Shown here: one piece after another, positions 31,999-51,605 of the stretch | How positions within the stretch are numbered: the stretch's first letter is position 1 | Layout of the letters: each line of letters starts with the position of its first letter | Assembly: GCF_026341775.1 (NCBI RefSeq) | Contig: NZ_JAPEOB010000002.1 | Location: 186,001-250,000, forward strand | Length of the DNA: 64,000 nucleotides | Direction: 5' to 3' | Origin: Streptomyces sp. NBC_00654 | GTDB lineage: Bacteria; Actinomycetota; Actinomycetes; Streptomycetales; Streptomycetaceae | Notes under the pieces: model-generated | What the model was told of the DNA's origin: nothing | Database searches by the model: none | What the model saw: only the letters and a program-made list of their open reading frames with translations | Program-made: the position numbers and the translations under genes

Positions 31999-33002
31999 TC
32001 GTCATTGAGGTAGTCCTGCAGCATGTGTGAGCGTGAGGGGTGGCGCAGCTTGCTCATCGTCTTGGCCTCGACCTGGCGTATGCGTTCGCGTGTCACGCCG
32101 TAGACCTTGCCGATCTCCTCCAGAGTCCTGGGGCTGCCTCCCAAGAGCCCGTACCGCAGGGAGATGATGCCGGCTTCGCGCGGGGTCATCTCCGCCAGGA
32201 TGGTCTGGATGGCTTGCCGGAGCAGGCCGAAGGCGACCACGTCCCAGGCGGAGGGCGAGTCGCTGTCCATGATGAGGTCGCCGAACTCGGTGTTCCCGTC
32301 GTCGGACAGAGTCGTCTCCAACGAGACGGGTTCCTTGTTGTAGGCGTTGAGTTCGGCCAGCCGTTCCACCGGGACGTCCGCCTTCTCGGCCAGTTCCTCC
32401 GGGGCGGGCTCGTCGCCGGATTTGCTGATCAGCTCACGGCGGATCCGTGCCACGCGGTTGATGATCTCCACTGTGTGCACCGGTATGCGGATGGTGCGGC
32501 TCTGGTCGGCCAGGGCCCGGGTGACCGCCTGTTTGATCCACCAGGTCGCATACGTGGAGAACTTGAAGCCCTTGGCGTAGTCGAACTTCTCCACGGCTCT
32601 GATCAGCCCGGTGTTGCCTTCCTGGATCAGGTCCAGGAACTGCAGTCCGCGCCCGGTGTAGCGCTTGGTGACGGCGACCACCAGGCGGAGGTTGGCCTCG
32701 GTGAAATGGTTCTTCGCGCGGCGGCCGTCCTCAGCGAGGAGGGCCAGTTCCCGGCGCACGTGCGTGTCCGGGCCCGGTCCTTCGGCGAGGAGATGTTCGG
32801 CATACAGACCGGCTTCGATGCGCTTGCTCAGTTCCACCTCCTGCTCGGCGGTCAGCAGTGGGACCTTGGCGATGAGCCGCAGGTAGTCCCTGACCTGATC
32901 GACCGTACTGTCTCCCGAGGGGAGCCTGGGGGCGGGGGCGTCGGTCTCGTCGTACTCCGGGAGCAGGATTTCCTCCGGGCGCTGTGTGTCTGTGGCGTTC
33001 AC
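31995..33002 (-). CDS. Group 1/2 RNA polymerase sigma factor (HrdB/HrdD-like)
   Basis: The 335-residue protein has sigma70 region 1.2 ([19 protein letters not shown]), region 2 ([37 protein letters not shown]), region 3 and region 4 with [19 protein letters not shown] then [10 protein letters not shown]. It lacks the long acidic N-terminus of HrdB and matches HrdA/HrdD in size. Start 33002 overlaps the uvrA-like stop in an ATGA, so translation was coupled to that gene. Because uvrA is now split by an IS, expression may be reduced or depend on a promoter within the IS or uvrA. The stop codon is supplied by the MITE-like repeat. Confidence 0.94.
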
Positions 33003-35669
33003 ATGGGCTCCAGCAGGGCGTTCAGATACCGTCCGGTGTGGGACCGGGCGTTGGCCGCGACCTGTTCCGGGGTGCCTTCGGCGATGACCTCGCCGCCCCG
33101 GTGTCCGCCGTCCGGCCCCATGTCGATCAGGTGATCGGCTGACTTGATCACGTCGAGGTTGTGCTCGATGACGACGACCGTGTTGCCGCCGTCGACCAGT
33201 CGTTGAAGCGCCGCCAGCAGACGGTCGACATCGGCGATGTGGAGGCCGGTGGTGGGTTCGTCCAGCACGTAGAGGGTGCGCCCACGAGTGCGGCGCTGGA
33301 GCTCGGCGGCGAGCTTGACGCGCTGCGCCTCACCGCCGGACAGGGTGGTGGCTGCCTGGCCGAGCTTCACATATCCGAGCCCGACGTCGTCCAGGGCCCG
33401 CAGATGCCGGGAGATGATCTGATGCCCGCCGAAGAAGTCCAGGCTCTCCGCCACGGTCATGGCGAGCACGTCCGCGATGGACCTCCCCCTGTAATGCACG
33501 TCGAGGGTCTCCTGGTTGTACTGGGCGCCCTGGCACACCTCGCACGGGACGTAGACGTCCGGAAGGAAGTTCATCTCGACCTTGATGGTGCCGTCGCCGT
33601 AGCAGTGTTCGCAGCGGCCGCCTTTGACGTTGAAGGAGAACCGGCCGGCCTGGTAGCCGCGCACTTTCGCCTCCGGGGTCCGGGCGAACAGCTTGCGCAG
33701 GTGGTCGAAGACGCCCGTGTACGTCGCCGGGTTGGAGCGGGGGCTGCGGCCTATCGGCGACTGGTCGACCTGGACCACCTTGCCGATGTACTCGATGCCG
33801 GTGATGGTGCGGTGCCGGCCCGGCACCCTGTGTGCGCGGTGGATGCGCCGGGCGAGCGCGGTGTGCAGAATGTCATTGACCAGGGTCGACTTGCCCGAGC
33901 CCGAGACGCCGGTGACCACGGTGAACAGGCCGAGCGGGAACGACACCGTCACGTTGCGCAGGTTGTGCTCGGATGCCCCGTGCACAGTGAGGGCGCGGCC
34001 CTGTGCCGGCTCTCTGCGCCGGGTGGGCAGGGGGATCGTACGGCGTCCGGAGAGGTAGGCGCCGGTGACGGACTCAGGATGTACGGCCAGTTCCTGTACG
34101 GTGCCCGAGCAGACGATCCGGCCGCCGTGCGCGCCTGCACCGGGGCCGACGTCCACCACCCAGTCGGCGCCCCGCAGCGTCTCCTCGTCGTGCTCGACGA
34201 CGATCACCGTGTTGCCGCGGTCGCGCAGCCGCTTCAGGGTCTCGATGAGCCGCTGGTTGTCGCGCTGGTGCAGCCCGATGGACGGCTCGTCCAGCACGTA
34301 CAGCACACCGGTCAGCCCCGCGCCGATCTGGGTCGCAAGCCGGATCCGCTGCGCCTCCCCGCCCGAAAGGGACGCGGCGGGCCGGTCGAGCGAGAGGTAG
34401 TCCAGGCCGACATCGAGCAGGAACCGCAGCCGCTCGCTGATCTCCGAGAGAACGGCCTCGGAGATCAGCTGTTCACGGGTGCTCAGTTCCAACGCCTCGA
34501 TGAACGTGGCGAGTTCACCGAGTGGAAGGGCGGCGGTCTGAGCGATGCTGCGCCCGCCGACCGTGACCGCGAGGACCTCCGGGGCGAGCCTCGCGCCCCC
34601 GCAGGCCGCACACGGCTCCGCGCGCATGTATCCGGCGAACCGGTTCTGACCGGCTGCGGACTCGGCACCCTCGGCGTAGCGGCGCTTGATGTGCGGTATG
34701 ACTCCTTCGAAGCGGGCCACGTGCGAGCGGTCACGTCCGAAGCGGTTCCGGTACGTGAGGTGCAGCCGCCGATCCGCCCCGTGCAACACCATCTGACGTG
34801 AATCGACGGAGAGTTCACGCCAGGGGGTGGTGACGCTGAAGCCGGCGTCTGCGCCCAGGGCTTCGAGCAGGCGGGCGTAGTGATCGGCGCCGCTGGTGTT
34901 GGCCCAGGGGGCGATGGCGCCCTCCGCCAGGGACATGGTGTCGTCCGGCACGACGAGAGCGGGGTCGACCTCCACGCGCGAGCCGAGGCCGCTGCAGGTG
35001 GGGCAGGCGCCCCAGGGCGCGTTGAAGGAGAACAGCCGGGGCTCCAGCGACTCCAGGCCGATGTCGTGGGAGCGCGGGCAGGCCATCTCCTCGGAGAGCA
35101 CCAGCTCGCGGCCGGGCGAGTCGAGTTCCTGATCCACGAACTCGACCCGGAGGACGCCGCATCCGAGCCCCAGCGCGGTTTCCACGGATTCCGTCAGCCG
35201 CTGTCGGATACCCGGCTTGACGGTCAGCCGGTCGATGACGGCGTCGATCGAGTGCTTCTTGCGCTTGTCCAGTGCGGGTGGCGTGGTCAGCGCAAAGACC
35301 GTCCCGTCAACCCGGACCCGGCTGAATCCATAGGCGGACAACTGCCGGAAGAGTTCGGCATGTTCGCCCTTGCGGTCGCGGACGACCGGGGCCAGCACCT
35401 GGAAGCGGGTCCCCTCATCTTCGTCCAACAGCAGGTCGACGATGCGCTGCGGTGTCTGCCGGCTGACCGGCTCGCCGCACTCGGAGCAATGGGGGTGGCC
35501 GATCCGGGCGTACAGCAGGCGCAGGTGGTCGTAGACCTCGGTGACGGTGCCCACCGTGGAACGCGGGTTGCGACTCGACGTCTTCTGATCAATGGCGATC
35601 GCTGGGGACAGTCCCTCAATGGCATCGACGTCGGGCGTGTCGAGCTGCCCGAGGAACTGCCGCGCATAA

Positions 35670-36650
35670 GAGCGACCGGCAAATGGTGGGCGGGGCTGCC
35701 CAGCCGGGCCCGAACGCAAGGCAGGCACGAGCCTGAGTGATCATGGAGTTCTTGACGCTCAGTGATCACCCGGAGGGCTCGTGCCTGCGGTCCCATCATG
35801 CCTTTTGGAACCCCTGTGGGACCAATTCGCCGTTCTGCTGCCCGTGCGGAACGAATACGCCGAGAGCCATCCGCTGGGTTGTCACCGGCGACGGGTTCCA
35901 GACCGGACCGTCTTCAAGTACATCGTGCTCGCGCTGGTCCACGGCTCCGGCTACGAGCGGATCGCTGGCGCCGGATGCTCCGACCGAACGATCCGACGCC
36001 GCGTCAAACAGTGGGCTGAACTGGGGATATCCGAGAAGGTCCATGCCCTCGCACTCGAGGCCTACGACCGCATGATCGGCCTCGGGCTGAGCGAGATCTC
36101 GGTGGACGGCTGCATCACCAAGGCCCCGTCCGGCGGTGACAAGGCCGGGCGGTCACCGGTGGACCGGGGCAAGCAGGGGCTGAAACGCTCCGTCGCCTCC
36201 GATGCCTGTGGTGTCCCGCTCGGGATCGTCTCCGACGGGGCCAACCGGCACGATTCACCCTTGCTCGGCCCCACCCTGGACGCGGCGCAGGCGCAGGTCG
36301 GCGCGATGCCGGAGACCGTCAACGTCAACCTCGACCGCGGCTACGACAGCGCCAAGTCCCGTTTACTGATAGCCGAGTTGGGTTTCACGGCCGAGATCGC
36401 CCGCAAGGGAGTGCCCGCCCCGATCCAAGCCGGCAAGCGCTGGGTGGTCGAGCGCACCCACTCGTGGATGAACGACTACGGCAAGCTCCGGCGCTGCACC
36501 GAGAGGAGCGGCGAGGTCGTGGACTTCTACCTCTACCTCGCCGCCACTCTCGTCACGCTCCGCATGCTCATCCGACGCTCGACGAGCCGCTACCGCTGGG
36601 ACGGCCGCCCCACCACCCGACGCCTCAAGTGATCCATTTGCCGGTCGGTC
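35670..36650 (+). mobile_element. IS5-family insertion sequence (981 bp) inside uvrA paralogue
   Basis: The ends are GAGCGACCGGCAAATGG at 35670-35686 and the complement of GACCGACCGGCAAATGG at 36634-36650, 16 of 17 bases matching. A TAA target duplication flanks it at 35667-35669 and 36651-36653. A three-base TNA-type duplication fits the IS1031/IS427-like groups of IS5. The element carries one intact transposase gene, so it may still be active. Confidence 0.94.
35781..36632 (+). CDS. IS5-family DDE transposase
   Basis: The 283-residue protein starts at GTG behind CGGAGGG. Its N-terminal 90 residues contain the helix-turn-helix GSGYERIAGAGCSDRTIRR. The DDE residues can be placed as Asp in ISVDGCITK, Asp in NLDRGYDSAKS and Glu in VVERTHSWMNDY, followed by the usual R/K helix. 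It catalyses movement of the surrounding 981-bp element. Confidence 0.95.
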   Translation: MPAVPSCLLEPLWDQFAVLLPVRNEYAESHPLGCHRRRVPDRTVFKYIVLALVHGSGYERIAGAGCSDRTIRRRVKQWAELGISEKVHALALEAYDRMIGLGLSEISVDGCITKAPSGGDKAGRSPVDRGKQGLKRSVASDACGVPLGIVSDGANRHDSPLLGPTLDAAQAQVGAMPETVNVNLDRGYDSAKSRLLIAELGFTAEIARKGVPAPIQAGKRWVVERTHSWMNDYGKLRRCTERSGEVVDFYLYLAATLVTLRMLIRRSTSRYRWDGRPTTRRLK

Positions 36651-37060
36651 TAAGCGGAGAGGGATTCGATATAACGCCGCTGCCCCTCGGCGAATATGGT
36701 ATCGAATGCCAGGCTTGACTTTCCGGATCCCGATACACCAGTGAACACGATAAGCGCATCCCGGGGCAGCTCGACGGATACGTCACGGAGATTGTGCTGC
36801 CGGGCACCCTTGACGACGAGCCGATTTCTCACTTCGCAAACCTCAGGTGGTGTCGAGAACGAGCCGAGACCAACCGTAACACCGCGCCACCACACGCCAG
36901 GCTCGCTATTCAGCACCAGATCTGTGTGGCAAATATCGCCCTTGACAGGGAAGCTCATCGCATGAGCAAAGAAAACCCGAGCAGGCTGGGAAAGCAGCGA
37001 GAAAACGCACGGGTGACTCTTGACCTCGCACAGAATGTTTGAGCAAGGGAAGGGACGGTT

Positions 37061-37953
37061 CAGTGAGCCTTTTCCAACCTCACGCTGATGCGTGGTGAAG
37101 GACAAGGACGGCCTTCACGACGTTGGTGATGCGGTTGGTGCTGCAGCGGAGCTTCCGCAGGAGGCGCCACCCCTTGAGGGTGGCCATGGCCTGCTCACCG
37201 AGGCAGCGGATCTTGGCGTGGGTGGTGCTGTGGCGGAGCTTCCACCGTTTGAGGCGCCGACCCCGAAACGGTACGCGGACGGGTCTGCCGGCGCCTTGGT
37301 ACGCCTTGTCCGCCCAGCATCTGAGTCCGGCTTCGGTAAGGGCTTCAATGATCCCGTGCTGTCGTGCGGCGGTCAGGTCGTGAGTCGAGCCGGGCAGAGT
37401 CGGCGGGACCCAGAGCAGCCGTCCAAACGGGTCGGTGAGGACCTGCACGTTCATGCCGTGACGCTTGTGTTTCCCGGAGCAATAGGGAGTGTCGGCGGCG
37501 ATGCGGTCGATCGGCAGCAGGGCGCCGTCGAGGATGACGAATGCCTTCTCCCTGATCGTCCGCATCGCCTCGGTCAAGGACAGGGCGAGGGTGGCCAGGG
37601 CCTCGACGGCTTCACGTATGTAGCGGTAGACAGTCGCGATCCCGACGCCGAACCCGGCGGCCAGCTGGGCGTAGGTGTCACCGCACCGCAGGTGAGCCAG
37701 GACGAGCAGAGCCTGACGCTCCGCGGGAAGGCGCCGCTAACGCGTACCGATCTCCTGCCGGCTGGCCTTCAGCCGTTCGGTCAGGAACCGCAGGGTGCGG
37801 CTGGACAGATCAATCGCCGACGGGTAGACAAGCACGCGAAGCTCCTGGCAGACACGGGTGATCTTGGTCGAGAACCCGTCTACCAGGAGCTTCGTCGTTG
37901 CGCATGCCCGTCCAACTCGCGGCCATCACCACCAGCTCGGAAAAGGCTCACTG
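37061..37953 (-). mobile_element. Inactivated IS5-type element, copy 1 (893 bp)
   Basis: Perfect 15-base inverted ends CAGTGAGCCTTTTCC (37061-37075) and GGAAAAGGCTCACTG (37939-37953) bound the element. Target duplications could not be recognised. Its transposase has an internal amber stop. A related copy of the same length and opposite orientation lies at 39751-40643. The bases between the uvrA start and this element (36833-37060) hold no gene. Confidence 0.85.
37080..37835 (-). pseudogene. IS5-family (DDE_4-type) transposase with internal stop
   Basis: From GTG 37835 the frame reads VLVYPSAIDLSSRTLRFL to IGTR, then hits TAG at 37737-37739. In the same frame it resumes RRLPAERQALLVLAHLRCGD, then GVGIATVYRYIREAVEAL and runs to the end. 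The DDE core has VILDGALLPIDRI, YSGKHKRHGMNVQVL and CWADKAYQGAG. The amber replaces a tryptophan codon in the related copy (TRWRRL against SRWRRL), so a single base change killed the gene. Confidence 0.88.
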
Positions 37954-39685: not shown

Positions 39686-39704
39686 TGGTTGTGGCTCGCG
39701 TCAT

Positions 39705-39738
39705 GCGGCTCCCGTCCACAGTCATGGACGGGAGCCGC
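39705..39738. terminator. Terminator hairpin of secreted-protein gene
   Basis: Fourteen-base perfect arms GCGGCTCCCGTCCA and TGGACGGGAGCCGC enclose six bases, 20 bases after the stop codon at 39685. Its position strongly supports factor-independent termination. Confidence 0.8.
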
Positions 39739-39750
39739 GTCCATGACGCA

Positions 39751-40643
39751 CAGAGTCTGTTTCCAGCCTGACGGAGGTTGGACGGGCAGCCCCGGCAGCG
39801 GACATAAGAAAGCCCCTGGTGGACGGGTTCACGACCAAGATCACCAGTCTGCCGGGAGCTTTCGCGTGCTTGTCCACCCGTCCGGCATCGATCTGTCCAG
39901 CCGCACTCTGCATCACCTCTCCGGTCTCCTCGCAGGCCACCGCCGTCGCATCGGCTCCCGGTGGCGTCGCCTGACCTGCGGCCGGCAGGCCCTGCTCGTC
40001 CTGGCCCACCTTCGCCGCGGCGACATCTACGCCCCCTTGCAGCAGGCTTCCGCGTCGGGATCGAGACCGTCTACCGGTACATGCGCGACGCCGTCGACCT
40101 TCTTGCCACTCGGACGCCCACGCTGGAGCAGGCCATGACGACGGTGTCGAGGCAGGCGTACGTGATCCGACGGCACCGAGCTGCCGATCGACCGGATCGC
40201 TGCCGACCAGCCGTACCACTCGGGGAAGAAGAAGCGCCACGGGATGAACGTGCAGGTTCTCGCGGATCCAGCCGGCCGTCCGATCCGGGCCTCGGACGCG
40301 CTGCCCGGAGCCGTGCACGATCTGACCGCGGCCCGGACCGGACCCACGGCATTCCCGCCGTTCTCGCCGCCGACGACATCAAGTGCTGGGCTGACAAGGC
40401 ATGTCAGGCGCAGGCCCTGCTGTCCGTGTCCCCGTTTCCGGGGCAAGAACCTGCGCGGCCGGCGTCGCCGTCACAACCGCGACGACGCCAAGGTCCGCGG
40501 CCTCGGCGAACGCGCCACGGCCACCCTCAAATGCTGGCGGCTCCTGCGGAAGCTCCGTTGCGGCACCACCCGGATCACCGCCGTCGTCCGTGCCGTCGTG
40601 GCCCTCGAACTCGCCACCTGATCAAGATGGAAAAGGCTCACTG
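39751..40643 (+). mobile_element. Degenerate IS5-type element, copy 2 (893 bp)
   Basis: The right end GGAAAAGGCTCACTG (40629-40643) equals that of copy 1, while the left end CAGAGTCTGTTTCC has decayed from CAGTGAGCCTTTTCC. Internal landmarks, such as TGGACGGG and GACGGGTTC.CGACCAAGATCAC before the transposase start, match copy 1. The orientation is opposite to copy 1. Confidence 0.75.
39866..40620 (+). pseudogene. IS5-family transposase with frameshifts
   Basis: Starting at GTG 39866 the frame reads VLVHPSGIDLSSRTLHHLSG, then SRWRRLTCGRQALLVLAHLR. A one-base loss near 40039 shifts it; the next piece, in another frame, is GFRVGIETVYRYMRDAVDLL. Further pieces (GMNVQVLADPAGRPIR, GLGERATATLKCWRLLRKLR) lie in yet another frame. 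The gene is beyond function. Confidence 0.85.
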
Positions 40644-40931
40644 TCCCCCCGGAGAACGCCCCGACCCGACCACCGGTCACCACGCGGTCGAGTGACACAC
40701 ACCAGCGAAACCCCACCCCGTAGACCGGCCGCCTGTGACACGCGGGGCGGTGCACACCGTTTCCGGGGCCGAACCCGTGCTCTTGGACGTACTCGCCGTA
40801 CGTCATGCCGATGACGTACGGCGGCAGGACCGGCGTCCACGAGAAGAACCGGTCATGATTGGATACGCACGGTCGTCGCGGACCACCATCGACGTGTTCC
40901 CGTTGGAGAGGACGCCCGGCTTCCTTCACTT
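40644..40931. other. Intergenic stretch with hairpin
   Basis: No gene is supported. The hairpin CCGTACGTCAT-gccg-ATGACGTACGG lies at 40796-40821. A minus-strand frame (TYGEYVQEHGFGPGNGVHRP) might be a gene remnant but has no recognised family. Confidence 0.4.
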
Positions 40932-41500
40932 TCAGCAGCAGCGTTCGTCCGGCACTTTGGGCAGCATCTGGAGGCTGACGGGCTCAGGATTGATCACGAG
41001 AGCGCGGGTCCTGTCCCAGTACCGCGCGAGCTGCTTCATCGTCGCGTTGGACTCCTCCAGGAGTATCAGCAGCCGCGGGCCGATGGCGTCCGGGGCGGCT
41101 CCGATGCCCAGTTCGTCGGCGACACGCGTTCGGCGCCGGCCTCCCATGCCGAGCTGGACCAGGGCGTCGTGCATGTCGGCGATGTCGCGGTAGTAGGTTG
41201 ACGCCGGGCAGGCGGTTCGCCCACGGGTGGAGATCCGCTTGATGTCGAGGACGGACACGAGCGAGCCGTGGTGGAGCATCTGGCAGGCGATGCACCGCAG
41301 GGACACCGACTTGCCGCCGCCGGTGGAGGCGTTGACCAGGTTGTGCGGGGATTCGGCGTCCAGGTCGACGGAGACGATCCGCGCACCGGCACGGAATCCG
41401 ACGGTCGGCGCGAGCCTGCTCTGTGACCATGCGGCCGCCCGCTCGTTCCCAGGACGAAGTCTCCGCATCCGGTAACACGTGCGGCGGCGGTCCCGGTCCC
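40932..41500 (-). pseudogene. FtsK/SpoIIIE-type conjugative transfer ATPase fragment
   Basis: The minus strand carries a Walker A region (NLVNASTGGGKSVSLRCIACQ), VSVLDIKRIS, YYRDIADMHDALVQLGMGG and a Walker B-like RLLILLEESNATMKQLARYW. This is the motor domain of FtsK/SpoIIIE-like Tra proteins from actinomycete integrative elements. The N-terminal part is frame-shifted and the C-terminal third is missing: after RYW the frame turns into unrelated residues. It marks a former conjugative element. Confidence 0.75.
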
Positions 41501-41621
41501 GACACGTTTCCGCGGCGGCGGAGAGCCGGGGCCTCAAGAACAACCAAGCTGGAAGGGAATCGGGCGACGCCGCCGCAGTATCCGGACCCCATTCTCCCGC
41601 GCCATCAACCGAGGTGAACCC

Positions 41622-43859
41622 GTGACCGTCATAGTGGGAACCCTGCCGGTACAGGAAACGGTGCACCGACTGCGTGCCCATCTCGCCGGACTCGTCGACG
41701 TACAGGGCCGCCTGCACTGCCCGTGTTCCAGCCGTGTCCTGGAATCCGCCCTCACGCTGCGCCTGCTCGATACCGAAGGCTGCCACCACCAAGCCCGCGC
41801 GCGTCTGCGCGCCTTCCTTGAGAAGGCGTCCAGCCGGCCCGGCGCAGGTGGGCTGGACCGGCTCCTGGCCCGTGCCGCCCTGTCACGGCCTCCCGCGCCG
41901 GGAGCCGGGGACGATGACGTTCTGGCAGGGTTCGTGCACCACACCGCCGTACGCAAGCGGATACTCATGGACACCGTCCTCCACCTCGCCGGCACTCCGG
42001 GCACGCTGCCCCGCCGTGGTCCGGAAGAGTTCGTCGCCGGGGAACTGCACAGCTGGAAGCGGCCGGAGATGCTGGCCTGTCACCTCATCCACCTTCACGC
42101 CCACCGGGACACCGGCCAGGTCGCGGCCGCCGATCTGGAGCCGCTGGCCGCCGTCCTGAGCGGCGAGCACATCCACGAACGCAACCACTTGTCCCACCTG
42201 CTGTACCTGTTCGCGCTGCGCCCCTACTCGGCCCATCGGCACCTGGTCGACGCGGGCATCGAGCGCCTGGTGGCCACCCAGGGCGCGGACGGCGGGTTCT
42301 CCCTGAGCCGGGACATCGACACCTGGGTCACCTCGGTCGGCGGCCTGGCCCTGTCCGAGGCGGGAGCCGACCGGGGTCTCCTGGACCGGACCTGCGCCTG
42401 GCTCGCCGCCCGCCAAGCCGACGACGGAGGGTGGTCTTTCACCGAAGGCGTCGCCCAGACCGACGCCGACACCGCCTACACCGTCCTCAAACTTCTCCAC
42501 CGGCATGCCCCCGCCCGGTACGCCAACAGCCTGGAGGCCGGTCATGCCTACCTGCGGCGGATGCAGAACCCCGACGGAGGCTGGCCCGTCTACCGGCGAA
42601 CCAACCCGTCCGAGGCGGCCATGACCGGCGGCGCGTTGTCCGCGCTCTGCGACCGGCCCCACGCCAATGCCGCCGCCATCACCGCAGGCGCGCGCTGGCT
42701 GATCCGCAACCAGCAGGGCGACGGCGCCTTCGAACGCAGTTGGAGCCTGTCGGAGGGCAACGCGCTGTTCCGCTCAGTCCACGGCCTGAACGCCGCCCTC
42801 GGCCATCACCTCCTGGACCCCGAGACCGCCGGCCACGCCCGCACCGCCGTCCACCGGGCCAGCGACTGCCTCCGCGCCGGCCAGAACGATGACGGCGGGT
42901 GGGGACATGGCAACGGGGCACCCAGCGACCCGATTTCCACCGGATACGCGCTCGCCGCCCTCGGCCCCGACGCCCGGCCGGACGTCCTGCATGCCGCCGC
43001 CACCTATCTCATTGCCCGCCAGCGACCGGACGGGGGATTCGACTCCACCCCGGACACCGTCTCGCCCCGGCCCATCCCGCTGGACCTGCCTGCCCTCGCA
43101 CCCGCCTACATCCTGCGCGGCCTCACCCATGCCCTTCCCACCGGCCCGCCGCCGCCTCGGAAGGCAGCGGTGAGGCCCGGCCGGGCTCCGGCACACACCG
43201 TTCAACCCGCACCAGGTACAAGCAGGTACCGAGCACAGATCTTCGACTTCGACGGCACCCTCGTCGACACGGCCGAGGTCAACCTGCACGCCGTCCACGC
43301 CGCACTGACCGCTCACGGTACGCACGTCCCACTGCGGTGGCTGCGCACCGTTCCACTCGCCGACCTCGGCGTGCTGCGCCGTCATCTGCTGGCCGCTCAC
43401 GGCTTGGTGCCGGCCTGCACGGACGCCGACATCGTACGCGCTGCCCGCGGCTACTGGCTGGCCCATACCCACCAGGTCCGTCCGGTCGCCGCAGTGGCCG
43501 CCGCCGCTCACGCCGCCGCGGAGAAAGGCCCCGTCGCGGTGGCATCCGCCAACGACGGCCACATCGTCCGAGCCGGACTCGCCGCCGCCGGACTCGCCCA
43601 CCTCTTCACCATCATCGTCACCCGCGAGGATGTGGCCGCCCTGAAACCGGCCCCGGACGCCTTCCTCACCGCGGCATCCCTCCTCGAAGTGGAACCCGCC
43701 CGCTGCCTCGCCTACGAGAACACCGACGAAGGCATCAGCGCAGCCCACACCGCCCGGATGGACACCATCGACATCCGCGCCACCCCCTGGACCGTCCGCC
43801 GACCACCGCACACGTACAGGTCCCGGTCGTTCTCGCCGAAAAGCAACACGTGGGAATGA
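41622..43859 (+). CDS. Terpene-cyclase-like (squalene/prenyltransferase repeat) - HAD phosphatase fusion
   Basis: One intact frame of 745 residues, GTG start behind CGAGGTGAA. Residues about 200-500 form an alpha/alpha-barrel with repeated QW-type motifs: QGADGGF, QADDGGW, QNPDGGW, QQGDGAF, QNDDGGW and QRPDGGF. Acidic motifs occur at DIDTW (231-235) and DADTA (281-285); the second sits where class II cyclases have DxDD, or DxDTT in drimane-type enzymes. After a Pro-rich linker, residues 537-730 are a HAD domain: DFDGTLVDT, VASANDG, LKPAPDAFL and AYENTDEG, where the usual second acid of motif IV is Asn. Known bifunctional drimenol synthases join these domains in the other order. A phosphatase-coupled class II cyclase is the best hypothesis. 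It lies among integrative-element debris. Confidence 0.85.
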   Translation: MTVIVGTLPVQETVHRLRAHLAGLVDVQGRLHCPCSSRVLESALTLRLLDTEGCHHQARARLRAFLEKASSRPGAGGLDRLLARAALSRPPAPGAGDDDVLAGFVHHTAVRKRILMDTVLHLAGTPGTLPRRGPEEFVAGELHSWKRPEMLACHLIHLHAHRDTGQVAAADLEPLAAVLSGEHIHERNHLSHLLYLFALRPYSAHRHLVDAGIERLVATQGADGGFSLSRDIDTWVTSVGGLALSEAGADRGLLDRTCAWLAARQADDGGWSFTEGVAQTDADTAYTVLKLLHRHAPARYANSLEAGHAYLRRMQNPDGGWPVYRRTNPSEAAMTGGALSALCDRPHANAAAITAGARWLIRNQQGDGAFERSWSLSEGNALFRSVHGLNAALGHHLLDPETAGHARTAVHRASDCLRAGQNDDGGWGHGNGAPSDPISTGYALAALGPDARPDVLHAAATYLIARQRPDGGFDSTPDTVSPRPIPLDLPALAPAYILRGLTHALPTGPPPPRKAAVRPGRAPAHTVQPAPGTSRYRAQIFDFDGTLVDTAEVNLHAVHAALTAHGTHVPLRWLRTVPLADLGVLRRHLLAAHGLVPACTDADIVRAARGYWLAHTHQVRPVAAVAAAAHAAAEKGPVAVASANDGHIVRAGLAAAGLAHLFTIIVTREDVAALKPAPDAFLTAASLLEVEPARCLAYENTDEGISAAHTARMDTIDIRATPWTVRRPPHTYRSRSFSPKSNTWE

Positions 43860-44014
43860 TCCGCAGGTCAGGGCGTGGGTCCCATCACGGCGGACCGGTC
43901 GCCGTGTTCGCGCAGCCCGGAGATCACCGCCGTCTCCATCGACCTGTCGGACTTCTCCGTCACCCTCAACGGCAGCACGTTCGATGCGCGGGCCGTCGCC
44001 GGACACGGCATGAC

Positions 44015-44210
44015 CCGCACCAGCATCAGCTCGGCATTCGGGCGAAGCCGGCCCGCAACCCCGCTCTCTTGGATCTCGCCGCCGAGCTTCCCGCTGTCGT
44101 CCTGAGCCGCCTCCCCGGCATCACCATCCGGTCGGCCACTCGCTGGACCCAACGCTCCGGGGCCTCCCGCAACGGCTACGCGGCCGACCTCTCCCGCCGC
44201 GGGGCGGGAG
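44015..44210 (+). pseudogene. C-terminal fragment of Streptomyces integrase-like protein
   Basis: The frame reads LGIRAKPARNPALLDLAAEL, then VVLSRLPGITIRSATRWTQR and YAADLSRR. Streptomyces tyrosine-recombinase-like proteins share this tail (LLGIHI..ATRW...YAA..S). The upstream part to 43870 is out of frame and lacks catalytic residues. It probably derives from the same lost integrative element as the FtsK fragment. Confidence 0.6.
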
Positions 44211-44325
44211 ACTCCCCAAGTTCCATGGCCGGGCCTGCCCCAGGGGAGACGTGTCCCAGGCGTGGACCACCCGGGAGGCCGGTCCAGCGGCACAGGCGGG
44301 CCGGGCCAGACCACCTGACGTCGCG

Positions 44326-45066
44326 TCAGCCCGTGACCCCGGGCACGACCAGGCCGGTTTCGTACGCGATCACCACCGCGTGGGTCCGGTTCTGCGCGCC
44401 GAGTTTGGTCAGCACGTTCCCGACATGCGTCTTCACCGTCTCCAGGCTCACCCTGCACGACTCCGCGATGTCCGGGTTGGACCGGCCGGTGGCCATCAGG
44501 CGCAGCACCTCCTCCTCCCGGCCCGTCAGCGCCGCCTGCGGCAGCGCTTCGGCGGATCCCAGGGGGCGGGCGGTGACCATCCGACGCAGGGCCGCCGGAA
44601 AGAGGATCGCCTCGCCCGCCGCGACCACCCGCACCGCCTCCGCGATCTTGGGGACGGGGAGACGCTTGAGCACGAAGCCGCTGGCCCCGGCACTGAGCGC
44701 GGCGGTGACGTAGTCGTCGTTCTCGAAGGTGGTGATCACCACGACTTTCGGCGGGTCGGCCGGCCCGGCGAGGAGCTGCCGGGTCGCCTCTATGCCGTTG
44801 CGGCGCGGCATCCGTACGTCCATCAGGACCACGTCCGGCCGCAACCGCCGCGCCTGCTCGACTGCTTCGATGCCGTCGGCGGCCTCCCCGACGACGGTGA
44901 TCCCGGGCCGCATTCCGAGCAGCGTGCGCAGACCGCTGCGGGTCACCTCGTCGTCGTCCGCGATCAGGAGGGTGGTGCAGCTGGCGGCACCGGGGGTGTC
45001 AGTTGTGACGGCTGTGCTCGTGTCGGGGCCGGTCACGACCGCTGCGGCCGCTTGTGAGCCGATCAT
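44326..45066 (-). CDS. NarL/LuxR-family response regulator
   Basis: The protein has 246 residues. The receiver domain contains LIADDDEVTRSGLRTLL, the phosphorylated Asp in VVLMDVRMPRRNG, VVVITTFEND and the Lys in FVLKRLP. The output helix-turn-helix reads LTGREEEVLRLMATGRSNPD, then VSLETVKTHVGNVLTKLGA. Start 45066 overlaps the kinase stop in ATGA. With its kinase it forms a NarL-type two-component system; the target genes may include the divergent DUF4190-like membrane protein, a guess based on position. Confidence 0.96.
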   Translation of the reverse strand: MIGSQAAAAVVTGPDTSTAVTTDTPGAASCTTLLIADDDEVTRSGLRTLLGMRPGITVVGEAADGIEAVEQARRLRPDVVLMDVRMPRRNGIEATRQLLAGPADPPKVVVITTFENDDYVTAALSAGASGFVLKRLPVPKIAEAVRVVAAGEAILFPAALRRMVTARPLGSAEALPQAALTGREEEVLRLMATGRSNPDIAESCRVSLETVKTHVGNVLTKLGAQNRTHAVVIAYETGLVVPGVTG

Positions 45067-46337
45067 GCGGGCAAGCGTACCGGCAGCCGGACCGCCAGCC
45101 GCCAGTGCTCCGGTCCGTCCGGACCGGCCTCGATTTCGCCGTGCAGGAGCCGCACGCGCTCGAAGAGGCCGGACAGGCCGTGCCCGGACGTTGGGAAGGT
45201 ACCCTGGCTCATTCCGCTCCCGGCTCCGGTCCGGTTGACCACGTCGAGCTGCAGCGAGTCCGGCGTGGCCGCCACCTTGACCCGGATCGGACCGCCCGCT
45301 CCGTGCCGCAGCGCGTTCGTCAGCCCTTCCTGCAGGATCCGGTACGCCGCCCGGGAGAGCGTCCCCTGCACCTGCGCACAGTCGCCCGACAGCCACGGCT
45401 CCACCGCCGCGCCCGCGTGCCGCAGCCGGTCGAGCAGCTCGGGCAGGTCGGCCAGGGTGCGGGCAGGCGCCGTCCCCGCTTTCTCCTCGCGCAGCATGCC
45501 CAGCACATAGTCCAGGTCCTCGAGGGCGGCCCGGGTCGACTCCTCGATGCTGCGCAGGGCGGCCCGCGCCGCCACCGGGTCGGCACAGAGCATCTCGCCC
45601 GCCACCGCTGCCTGGATCGTGGCGGCCGTCAGCGTGTGCCCGATCGAGTCGTGCAACTCGTGGGCCAGCCGGTTGCGTTCGGCCAGCACCCGCTCCCGCT
45701 CGGCCGCCAGCGCGAGCCGCTCGGCCGGCGACGGACCCAGAAGTCTGGGCGCCAGCCACCGCAGGGCGTACGTCACCGCAAGGCAAAGAGCCGCCGCCAG
45801 CAGCAGGCAGCAGAATGCCGCCGCCCAGCTCTGCCAGCCGCTCTCCGCCCGCAGCGACCAGCCGTTCACACTCACCCCGGCCTCGGCGCCCGCCCAACCG
45901 CCGGGAAGGAGCAGGCCCGCGATGAACAGCAGGACGCTCAGCTGCGCCCCCGCCCACCCCAGCGCCACATGCGACAGCAGCCAGAGCGGGGTCCGCCAAC
46001 GGTCGGCGCCCAGTGCCGCGGAAGAAGCCGCCCCCTCACCGGGCGGGCCCGCACCCCGACGCTCGCCCACGGGATCCGGCAATGGCACCCGCAGCATCCG
46101 CCGGGCGCAAGCGATCAGCACCCGCCGCGTGGTACGAGCCAGCCCGATCACACCGATCAGTACGGACCAGGCCAGCACGGTCAGAGCGAACTGCACTCCC
46201 ACGGAAGCGGATGGCCACGCCATCGCCGGCAGTGCTGCGAAAGGCAGCAATGGAAGGCTCGCCAACGCGCCGCAGTAGGCGAATAGCGCACCCGAATACG
46301 TGGAGCCGCGCAGCAGCGGCCGGATTCCTCTGAACAT
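45063..46337 (-). CDS. Sensor histidine kinase (NarL/DesK type)
   Basis: The kinase has 424 residues. About four membrane segments lie in the first 200 residues (SLPLLPFAALPAMAW, FALTVLAWSVLIGVIGLA, LSVLLFIAGLLLPGGW, CCLLLAAALCLAVTYALRWL). The HisKA_3 domain has the phospho-acceptor in RLAHELHDSIGHTL, and the ATPase domain has EGLTNALRHG and SGHGLSGLFERV. ATG 46337 is chosen before the first membrane segment; the ribosome site is weak. The signal sensed is unknown. Confidence 0.93.
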   Translation of the reverse strand: MFRGIRPLLRGSTYSGALFAYCGALASLPLLPFAALPAMAWPSASVGVQFALTVLAWSVLIGVIGLARTTRRVLIACARRMLRVPLPDPVGERRGAGPPGEGAASSAALGADRWRTPLWLLSHVALGWAGAQLSVLLFIAGLLLPGGWAGAEAGVSVNGWSLRAESGWQSWAAAFCCLLLAAALCLAVTYALRWLAPRLLGPSPAERLALAAERERVLAERNRLAHELHDSIGHTLTAATIQAAVAGEMLCADPVAARAALRSIEESTRAALEDLDYVLGMLREEKAGTAPARTLADLPELLDRLRHAGAAVEPWLSGDCAQVQGTLSRAAYRILQEGLTNALRHGAGGPIRVKVAATPDSLQLDVVNRTGAGSGMSQGTFPTSGHGLSGLFERVRLLHGEIEAGPDGPEHWRLAVRLPVRLPA

Positions 46338-46480
46338 AGCCAGGCAAGTATGGCCGGACGGCCCACCGGCGGCCTCCCCCGATCGGGGGAGCGAATTCTC
46401 CCGCCTTCCCGCGATGTGTCCGTTGGCCCCGGAAACCAGAATCGGGGTCTCACCAGTTGACGGGACGGAAGGACGGGCTG

Positions 46481-46903
46481 TTGAACGCTCAGAGGATCGA
46501 GACGCCGCTGAACCACACGGTGTCCGCGCAGGACCAGGCCGTACGGACTCTGACGGCAACGAACGGAGTGGCACAGGGCCTGACAACACCGAAGAACAGC
46601 CTGGCCACGGCCGCCATGACACTGGGCATCATCAGCCTGTGCACCTCGGTCGTCTTCATCGGCGGCCCGCTCGCCGTGATCGGTCTGATCCTGGGCATCG
46701 CCGCGCTGATGGCGGCCAAGCGGACCGGTATGGGCCGGGGCAAGGCCGTCACCGCCGTGGTGACGTCGTCCCTCGCGATCGTGGTGTCCGGGCTGGTCGC
46801 CGTCTTCATGGTCTGGTACGCGAACAAGACGCAGGAGTGCTACCAGCCCGACAGCTTCCACCAGTACACGCAGTGCGTCCGCGAGCACCTGAACGGAAAC
46901 TGA
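46481..46903 (+). CDS. DUF4190-like small membrane protein
   Basis: The protein has 140 residues if TTG 46481, preceded by GGAAGGACGG, is the start; TTG 46457 would add eight residues. Two membrane segments (LATAAMTLGIISLCTSVVFI then GGPLAVIGLILGIAALM; VVTSSLAIVVSGLVAVFMVW) are joined by AAKRTGMGRGKAV, the typical DUF4190 arrangement. A short extracellular tail has two cysteines (QECYQ, QCVREH). It is divergent from the two-component genes. Confidence 0.85.
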   Translation: MNAQRIETPLNHTVSAQDQAVRTLTATNGVAQGLTTPKNSLATAAMTLGIISLCTSVVFIGGPLAVIGLILGIAALMAAKRTGMGRGKAVTAVVTSSLAIVVSGLVAVFMVWYANKTQECYQPDSFHQYTQCVREHLNGN

Positions 46904-50343: not shown

Positions 50344-51246
50344 CTATGCGGCTCGGGTCAGGGTAGTTGATAGTGGGTGGAAGGTGGTCTCGTAGGCGAT
50401 CGGGGAGCGTTGTCCGAGGCGGGAATGCCGGCGTCGGGTGTTGTATCGGGTCAGCCATCGGAAGGCGTCGAGCCGGGCCTCACGCTCGCTTGGCCAGCCC
50501 CTTTGCCCCTTCAGCGTCTCTCTTTTGAAGGTCGCGTTGAACGACTCCGCCAGTGCGTTGTCCGCGCTGGACCCGACCGCGCTCATGCTCTGACGGACCC
50601 CTGCTGACCTGCAGGCTTCGGCGAATTCTCGGCTCGTGTATTGCGAGCCGTGGTCGGTGTGCATCACCGCCCCGGCCAGGCTCCCGCGGGTCCGCTCGGC
50701 GGCGGCCAGGGCGTCGGTAACGAGTTCGGTCCGCATGTGATCGGCGACTGCCCACCCCGCCAGGCGTCTCGAGCAGAGGTCGATGACGGTCGCGAGATAG
50801 CAGAACTTCCCGCCACCGATCCTCAGGTAGGTGATGTCGCCGACGTACTTCGTGTTCGGGGCCGTGGCGGTGAAGTCACGCCCGATCAGGTCCGGCGCCT
50901 TCGGCGCGGCCGGGTCCGCGACGGTGGTGCGCTGCCGGCGCCGCAGCCGGACGCCCTCGAGCCCGATCGTCCGCATGATCCTCGCAACCCGCTTGTGGTT
51001 GACCGCCTGGCCGCCGTCGTCGCGGAGCTCAGCGGTGATTCTCGGGGCGCCGTAGGTGCCGTCGGAGTCCTCGTGGACCTTGCGTATCCGGGCGGCGAGC
51101 TGGGCGTCAGCGGCCTGCCGGGCCACCCTGGCAGGGGCGGTCCGGCGCCAGTAGTAGAAGCTCGAGCGGGAGATCCCGAGAATGTCACAGAGCCGCTTGA
51201 CGCCGAACCGGCGCTGATGATCTTCAACGAACTGGCAGCGGGTCAC
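50344..51246 (-). CDS. IS3-family transposase OrfB (integrase core)
   Basis: The frame has 300 residues from a GTG that overlaps the OrfA stop; a programmed frameshift fusion with OrfA is the usual alternative. The HTH_21 part has RRFGVKRLCDILGISRSSFY. The rve core carries the DDE residues in YVGDITYLRIG, MHTDHGSQYTS and NALAESFNATFKRE. The C-terminus YNTRRRHSRLGQRSP is standard for IS3. Confidence 0.95.
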   Translation of the reverse strand: MTRCQFVEDHQRRFGVKRLCDILGISRSSFYYWRRTAPARVARQAADAQLAARIRKVHEDSDGTYGAPRITAELRDDGGQAVNHKRVARIMRTIGLEGVRLRRRQRTTVADPAAPKAPDLIGRDFTATAPNTKYVGDITYLRIGGGKFCYLATVIDLCSRRLAGWAVADHMRTELVTDALAAAERTRGSLAGAVMHTDHGSQYTSREFAEACRSAGVRQSMSAVGSSADNALAESFNATFKRETLKGQRGWPSEREARLDAFRWLTRYNTRRRHSRLGQRSPIAYETTFHPLSTTLTRAA

Positions 51247-51605
51247 CAGCGCGTCTCCGTCGCGAAATACCGGGCCGCCTTGCGGAGGATGTCGCGTTCT
51301 TCCTCCAGCTCGCGGATCCTCTTGCGCGCGGCGGCCAGCTCCGCCTGAACCAGCTCGCCGCCAGGCTGCGGCGCAGCCGCAGGCGCGGAGTGGGCACCGG
51401 CACGGCGTCCGTCGGCGGCCCGGATCCAGTTCCGCAGCGTCTCGGTGTTCACCCCGAGATCGGTGGCAACAGACTTGATCGTCGCTCCCGGACGCGACCG
51501 GTAGAGCGCCACCGCGTCCGCCTTGAACTCGGTGGGATAGTGCTTCATCCCCACAGGGACTCCGTTCTCCTGGACCATCAAGATCCAAGTCTCTCCGGTG
51601 TCCAA
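51243..51605 (-). CDS. IS3-family transposase OrfA (HTH protein)
   Basis: The frame has about 120 residues, the conserved part starting at MKHYPTEFKADAVALYRSRP near residue 20. A helix-turn-helix (SVATDLGVNTETLRNWIR) is followed by a C-terminal leucine-zipper helix (AELAAARKRIRELEEERDIL). The likely start is ATG 51548 in that frame; the first residues run into the IS end. It overlaps OrfB by four bases. Confidence 0.92.
   Translation of the reverse strand: MDTGETWILMVQENGVPVGMKHYPTEFKADAVALYRSRPGATIKSVATDLGVNTETLRNWIRAADGRRAGAHSAPAAAPQPGGELVQAELAAARKRIRELEEERDILRKAARYFATETRW

What the first reader, a model, noticed from the sequence alone, without database searches (positions are those of the whole stretch)
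41622..43859. Class II terpene-cyclase-like domain fused to a HAD phosphatase in reversed order
Six QW-type repeats and two DxDT motifs (DIDTW, DADTA) are joined to a C-terminal HAD domain with DFDGTLVDT. Bifunctional drimenol-type synthases that cyclise and then dephosphorylate farnesyl diphosphate are known, but carry the HAD domain at the N-terminus. Here the order is swapped, the acidic motif is altered and HAD motif IV has Asn. This could be a new terpene-forming enzyme class.
Basis: partly seen in the sequence, partly recalled or inferred. Interest (0 to 1): 0.8.

Follow-up and report, generated by a model that had tools for sequence, protein, structure and literature searches.

The report
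Terpene cyclase fused to its phosphatase
A soil bacterium of the Streptomyces kind carries one protein that joins a terpene ring-forming enzyme to a phosphate-removing enzyme in the opposite order from the known fusions, and relatives keep the same two parts as neighbouring genes, so it is most likely a self-contained maker of a cyclic terpene alcohol that arose independently.

The parts
41622..43859 (+). TC-HAD fusion gene, 745 aa, GTG start, TGA stop
   Evidence: open without stops in own genome
41611..41616 (+). Shine-Dalgarno-like GAGGTG, 5 nt before the GTG start
   Evidence: read
41622..43145 (+). class II terpene cyclase, beta-gamma didomain type (residues 1-508)
   Evidence: AlphaFold2 model and Foldseek/VIA matches to SsDMS
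42462..42476 (+). DADTA (D281-A285): catalytic DxDT acid motif, D283 = SsDMS D303
   Evidence: alignment; conservation
42312..42326 (+). DIDTW (231-235): resembles DxDT but does not align with the catalytic motif
   Evidence: aligned to a stretch without the acids in SsDMS; position 231 Asp in 14 of 60 rows
43146..43223 (+). linker (residues 509-534), predicted disordered 511-532
   Evidence: pLDDT below 50 at 511-532
43170..43172 (+). in-frame GTG (V517) at the place of the HAD start codon of unfused relatives; vestige of the GTGA/ATGA overlap
   Evidence: junction comparison with L088: 36 nt here against 38 nt there; codon checked
43224..43787 (+). HAD_2 phosphatase domain (residues 535-722)
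43245..43259 (+). HAD motif I DFDGT (D542, D544)
43545..43547 (+). HAD motif II Ser642
   Evidence: S in 42, T in 2 of 44 rows
43644..43646 (+). HAD motif III Lys675
   Evidence: 44 of 44 rows
43716..43721 (+). HAD motif IV Glu699-Asn700
   Evidence: position 699 E 41, D 3 of 44; position 700 N 30, D 14 of 44

Best explanation
A bifunctional class II terpene cyclase-phosphatase made by fusing a translationally coupled cyclase-HAD gene pair. Shown: one intact ORF; SsDMS-like beta-gamma cyclase fold (predicted) with the catalytic Asp kept; a HAD domain predicted to fold, with motifs I-III kept; unfused pairs in relatives. Inferred: D283 protonates the distal double bond of a prenyl diphosphate, probably FPP; a bicyclic drimane-like diphosphate forms in the beta-gamma cavity; it leaves still bearing diphosphate and is hydrolysed, probably in two Mg2+-dependent steps through an aspartyl-phosphate at D542, to the cyclic alcohol, which a P450 may oxidise where one is present. 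The fusion supplies phosphatase and cyclase in fixed 1:1 ratio.
Against: No activity data. N700 replaces an acidic residue; in AsDMS both acids of that pair, D195 and D196, are essential, and AstC, with a non-canonical HAD site, has no phosphatase activity in vitro, so the HAD could be weak or inactive. F248 and Y505 of SsDMS, changed in the solved mutants, are Leu here by the alignments, so product and chain length may differ. No prenyl synthase or P450 was found beside the gene (10 ORFs tested), and none of the genome's five prenyl synthase genes lies on this contig. One of 13 plasmid HADs has no cyclase next to it. The flexible linker leaves domain arrangement and channelling unpredicted. 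The HAD tree does not resolve the two fused forms as a clade.
Confidence: 0.72

Rival explanations
1. Same two-step logic but on GGPP: a labdane- or halimane-like diterpene alcohol rather than a drimane.
For: SsDMS residues F248 and Y505 are Leu here. A cyclase in what may be the neighbouring lineage (fork support 87/73, not strong), S. clavuligerus L092, lies next to a class I terpene synthase, an arrangement that I recall from labdane-type diterpene pairs. The prenyl synthase beside L009 scores best with an encapsulin-cargo polyprenyl transferase model and then a GGPP synthase model, both below cut-off.
Confidence: 0.22
2. The HAD domain is catalytically weak or inactive; the protein is a diphosphate synthase and other phosphatases finish the job.
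For: Motif IV is E-N; AstC is a precedent for a non-canonical HAD site without activity; SsDMS-type clusters carry a Nudix hydrolase.
Against: The E-N variant is conserved in stand-alone partner proteins together with D542, D544, S642 and K675; HAD dN/dS 0.32 against L088; repeated pairing of the HAD with cyclases.
Confidence: 0.15
3. The HAD is a sugar-phosphate phosphatase joined by accident.
For: NCBIfam nearest models are the beta-phosphoglucomutase family and sugar phosphatases.
Against: In the lists shown, those scores are below the curated cut-offs except for the generic HAD-IA model; stand-alone HADs of this clade sit beside class II cyclases in 12 of 13 plasmid records.
Confidence: 0.05
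4. Assembly or frameshift artefact, or a decaying gene.
For: The gene lies among transposase-like pieces, and the fusion differs from the L088 pair by a net 2-nt change at the junction.
Against: A second strain has an in-frame fusion with a different linker length (P0002); no stop inside; third-position GC 0.86 and 0.84 in the two domains and dN/dS 0.32.
Confidence: 0.05

Closest known systems
SsDMS, drimenyl diphosphate synthase of Streptomyces showdoensis (7xq4, 7xr7, 8zg0 and others)
   Same: class II cyclase, 36-38% identity, same predicted fold over nearly the whole cyclase; described as beta-gamma in PMC13244436
   Different: no HAD domain; DVDD instead of DADT; F248 and Y505 are Leu here; PMC11035983 tells of a Nudix hydrolase next to SsDMS-type cyclases
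HAD-TCbeta drimenol synthases (AsDMS; fungal AstC)
   Same: one chain joins a class II cyclase to a HAD domain; DxDT as first four letters of the acid motif; expected order of reactions
Uncharacterised N-terminal HAD-class II cyclase fusions (P0018, P0087, P0089)
   Same: SsDMS-like cyclase fused to a HAD
   Different: HAD at the N-terminus, PF12710 as best HAD family, in another part of the cyclase tree
Stand-alone cyclase plus HAD gene pairs (Streptomyces NBC plasmids, WAC06614, Kitasatospora CB01950)
   Same: same cyclase clade, same HAD clade, same order
   Different: two genes: 4-nt overlap in the eight plasmid junctions read, short gaps in L009 (4 nt) and L010 (17 nt)

Membership tests
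SsDMS-type class II beta-gamma cyclase | beta-gamma fold of about 500 aa | tested here: met
SsDMS-type class II beta-gamma cyclase | catalytic middle Asp of DxDD | tested here: met
   D283 aligns with D303; D in 55 of 60 rows
SsDMS-type class II beta-gamma cyclase | full DxDD | tested here: not met
   fourth residue is Thr284; DxDTT is reported for other drimenol synthases
SsDMS-type class II beta-gamma cyclase | FPP to drimenyl diphosphate | not testable with these tools
   needs an assay
HAD-TCbeta | HAD at the N-terminus | tested here: not met
   HAD_2 at residues 540-716 of 745
HAD-TCbeta | beta-domain-only cyclase | tested here: not met
   cyclase aligned over 7-505 with the beta-gamma SsDMS
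HAD-TCbeta | DxDTT motif | tested here: not met
   DADTA; the first four positions fit, the fifth is Ala
HAD-IA phosphatase (HAD_2) | motifs I, II, III | tested here: met
   D542/D544, S642, K675; HAD_2 64.2 bits against cut-off 23.8
HAD-IA phosphatase (HAD_2) | acidic pair in motif IV | tested here: not met
   E699-N700
HAD-IA phosphatase (HAD_2) | Mg2+-dependent dephosphorylation | not testable with these tools
   needs an assay

The most novel reading that the evidence does not exclude
A separate, independently evolved family of class II cyclase-HAD partnerships in actinobacteria: one HAD clade, most of it with an unusual Glu-Asn metal motif, serves several distant class II cyclase lineages, as coupled gene pairs, TC-P450-HAD operons and now a TC-HAD fusion, and the fused enzyme makes a terpene alcohol that is not drimenol.
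Probability: 0.35. Interest if true: 0.7.

Novelty: new variant of a known kind. Interest (0 to 1): 0.52.

Why it matters
It suggests that joining a class II cyclase to its own phosphatase arose more than once with different cyclase types, HAD subfamilies and domain orders. The fused and unfused versions of one pair, about 79% identical in each domain, are a natural experiment on whether fusion improves hand-over of the diphosphate intermediate, a matter under study for AsDMS and AstC. The HAD is also a genome-mining handle for terpene alcohol gene clusters in actinobacteria.

Tried and rejected
Whole-genus searches with n of 400, 150 and 120 gave no answer; smaller ones did; 6 of 41 genomes have a match at E<=1e-20, own genome included, one of them (G028) only through the HAD part; 11 of 91 genomes have a cyclase match at E<=1e-40, own included; only 11 candidates per genome were scored; of 81 genomes, only the own one has the HAD at E<=1e-30; G094, which has a HAD match at 4.3e-45 with the full-length query, was not in that set.

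Rejected: DIDTW as a second catalytic motif. Rejected as unlikely: descent from HAD-TCbeta by domain swapping. Left open: whether the two fusions are one event. The cyclase tree joins them (96/87), the HAD tree does not resolve them, and the stretch before the old start codon is 12 residues here and 11 in P0002.

P0033, labelled SsDMS in those calls, carries Ala at the catalytic position, so it seems a mutant construct; it is the one A in the 60-row count for D283.

Promoter and terminator scan of 41200-44300 found nothing. The SsDMS paper (PMC10064485) is not held; what I say of it comes from other papers and PDB titles. The HAD and cyclase of L117 were not placed in a tree; 'related HAD' rests on 51% identity to ours and a motif like P0150 and its kin.

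Chosen before counts: alignment A1 holds the query, 59 cyclase relatives (P0002 among them) and 42 HAD relatives, picked from the 120 and 87 proteins listed; N-terminal HAD fusions and class I fusions were left out of it. One search listed 120 of 135 hits, and only 7994 candidates were scored. Three extra places (16 places in 13 records) were not examined. Four of the seven NBC records (NBC_00012, 00046, 01592, 01650) were judged from the two-piece tblastn rows alone.

Full report
WHAT IS THERE. The ORF at 41622-43859 (+) is 745 aa with a GTG start and a Shine-Dalgarno-like GAGGTG. It is open without interruption in its own genome, a 9.6-Mb assembly in 15 contigs. Pfam places squalene-hopene cyclase domains in the first part and HAD_2 at 540-716. 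phmmer against solved structures puts six distinct SsDMS sequences first, E 2.5e-76 to 6.5e-75, from residue 16 to 504-510; the next cyclase is at 2.3e-15 (named as SsDMS).

MOTIFS. In the alignment to SsDMS the catalytic DVDD (D303 in the PDB titles) falls on D281-A-D283-T284. Over 60 cyclase rows, position 281 is Asp in 60 and position 283 in 55 (Glu in 4, Ala in 1, apparently a mutant construct); position 284 is Asp in 33 and Thr in 14. DIDTW at 231 aligns with a stretch of SsDMS that lacks those acids. In 44 HAD rows, D542 is kept in 42 (2 gaps), D544 in 43 (1 gap), S642 in 42 (Thr in 2), K675 in 44; position 699 is Glu in 41 and Asp in 3; position 700 is Asn in 30 and Asp in 14. Ten of the 14 Asp rows are outer HADs (P0158-P0169); four lie inside the cyclase-associated clade (P0138, P0150, P0151, P0154). 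So Asn is a trait of most of the clade, not of the fusion.

GENE PAIRS. In Streptomyces NBC_01362 and NBC_01005 plasmids the cyclase and a 'HAD family phosphatase' overlap by four bases. The HAD query finds 13 plasmid records at E<=1e-20. In 12 of them a class II cyclase gene is directly upstream: seven NBC records with the same cyclase clade (L088, L089 and L109 read directly), three S. atratus, NBC_01591, NBC_00376. The exception is NBC_00984, where no cyclase match was found in 12.6 kb. Eight junctions were read (L088, L089, L091, L106, L107, L108; L090 and L109); all show ATGA or GTGA. The S. atratus-type cyclase is only 29% identical over 326 aa to ours and has DNDTT. Of 79 genome-contig loci, two (L009, L010) match well into the HAD, to residues 719 and 722, and both have separate adjacent ORFs with gaps of 4 and 17 nt. 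L009 adds a polyprenyl synthetase upstream on the other strand and a P450 overlapping the HAD stop.

THE FUSION. From the CTT/TTT-CCC-ACC anchor to the HAD start codon there are 38 nt in L088 and 36 nt here. The old start survives as an in-frame GTG at 43170, followed by the same AGGCCC. A net two-base difference therefore accounts for the lost cyclase stop and the joined frames. P0002 from Streptomyces sp. NPDC006482 is also fused, with an N-terminally shorter gene call of 642 aa; its stretch before the old start is one residue shorter. By the Pfam columns it was the only other C-terminal HAD fusion among the 120 proteins listed. Pairwise dN/dS against L088 is 0.32 for each domain.

TREES. 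In the cyclase tree (42 rows) the window protein and P0002 form a clade (96/87) inside a 13-row clade (99/99) that holds eight of the nine rows labelled as pairs; the ninth, S. atratus, is on a very long branch. The three N-terminal HAD fusions lie elsewhere. In the HAD tree (47 rows) a 37-row clade (100/98) holds the nine HADs labelled as paired and both fused ones. Some of the pair labels (P0004/P0124, P0006/P0132, P0010/P0130) rest on equal organism and contig length, not on a read junction.

LITERATURE. AsDMS: HAD at the N-terminus, TCbeta only, cyclisation by D333, stepwise dephosphorylation by D43 with D195/D196 essential (PMC12365925: introduction, first part of results, two further sections). 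Fungal AstC lacks phosphatase activity in vitro; SsDMS is described there as a beta-gamma enzyme (PMC13244436: two sections and passages). DxDTT in bacterial drimenol synthases (PMC9128629, passages). A Nudix hydrolase beside SsDMS-type cyclases (PMC11035983, abstract and one section). Also seen: abstract of PMC12453296, passages of PMC12860625 and PMC9814783. Seven searches, judged by their listings, turned up no report of a C-terminal HAD on a class II cyclase or of this gene pair; the library holds only openly licensed PMC papers, so this does not show that none exists.

CONCLUSION. The domain reading is firm. That it cyclises and dephosphorylates a prenyl diphosphate is well supported by homology, predicted fold and repeated pairing, but is inference. 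FPP is the likelier substrate; the product is not predictable from these data.

Noticed in passing
window 32999-37105 (-) with 35781-36632 (+): A uvrA-like gene (UvrA domains at 32999-35728; an apparent N-terminal piece at 36650-37105, read, recalled signature) appears split by a transposase-like ORF.
   Followed up: no
window 37080-37577, 39689-40695, 50344-51588: Transposase-like pieces near the fusion gene, the first two judged from the translations; 50344-51588 has an rve integrase core.
   Followed up: no
window 44326-46622 (-): LuxR-type response regulator and histidine kinase pair just downstream of the fusion; the NBC_01362 plasmid carries a kinase-regulator pair upstream of its cyclase-HAD pair. 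Relatedness not tested.
   Followed up: no
window 43159-43172: GGAAGG stretch before the in-frame GTG 43170: free HAD might also be translated from inside the fusion gene.
   Followed up: no
P0087 (Saccharothrix syringae): N-terminal HAD-cyclase fusion whose catalytic motif reads DAGD, lacking the middle Asp: possibly inactive or altered cyclase.
   Followed up: no
P0025, P0043, P0048, P0085: SsDMS-like cyclase fused to a class I terpene synthase domain (PF19086), 880-974 aa.
   Followed up: no
L092 4986-7539: S. clavuligerus cyclase with Glu at the catalytic acid position (DIET) directly after a class I terpene synthase gene.
   Followed up: partly
   Followed up: partly
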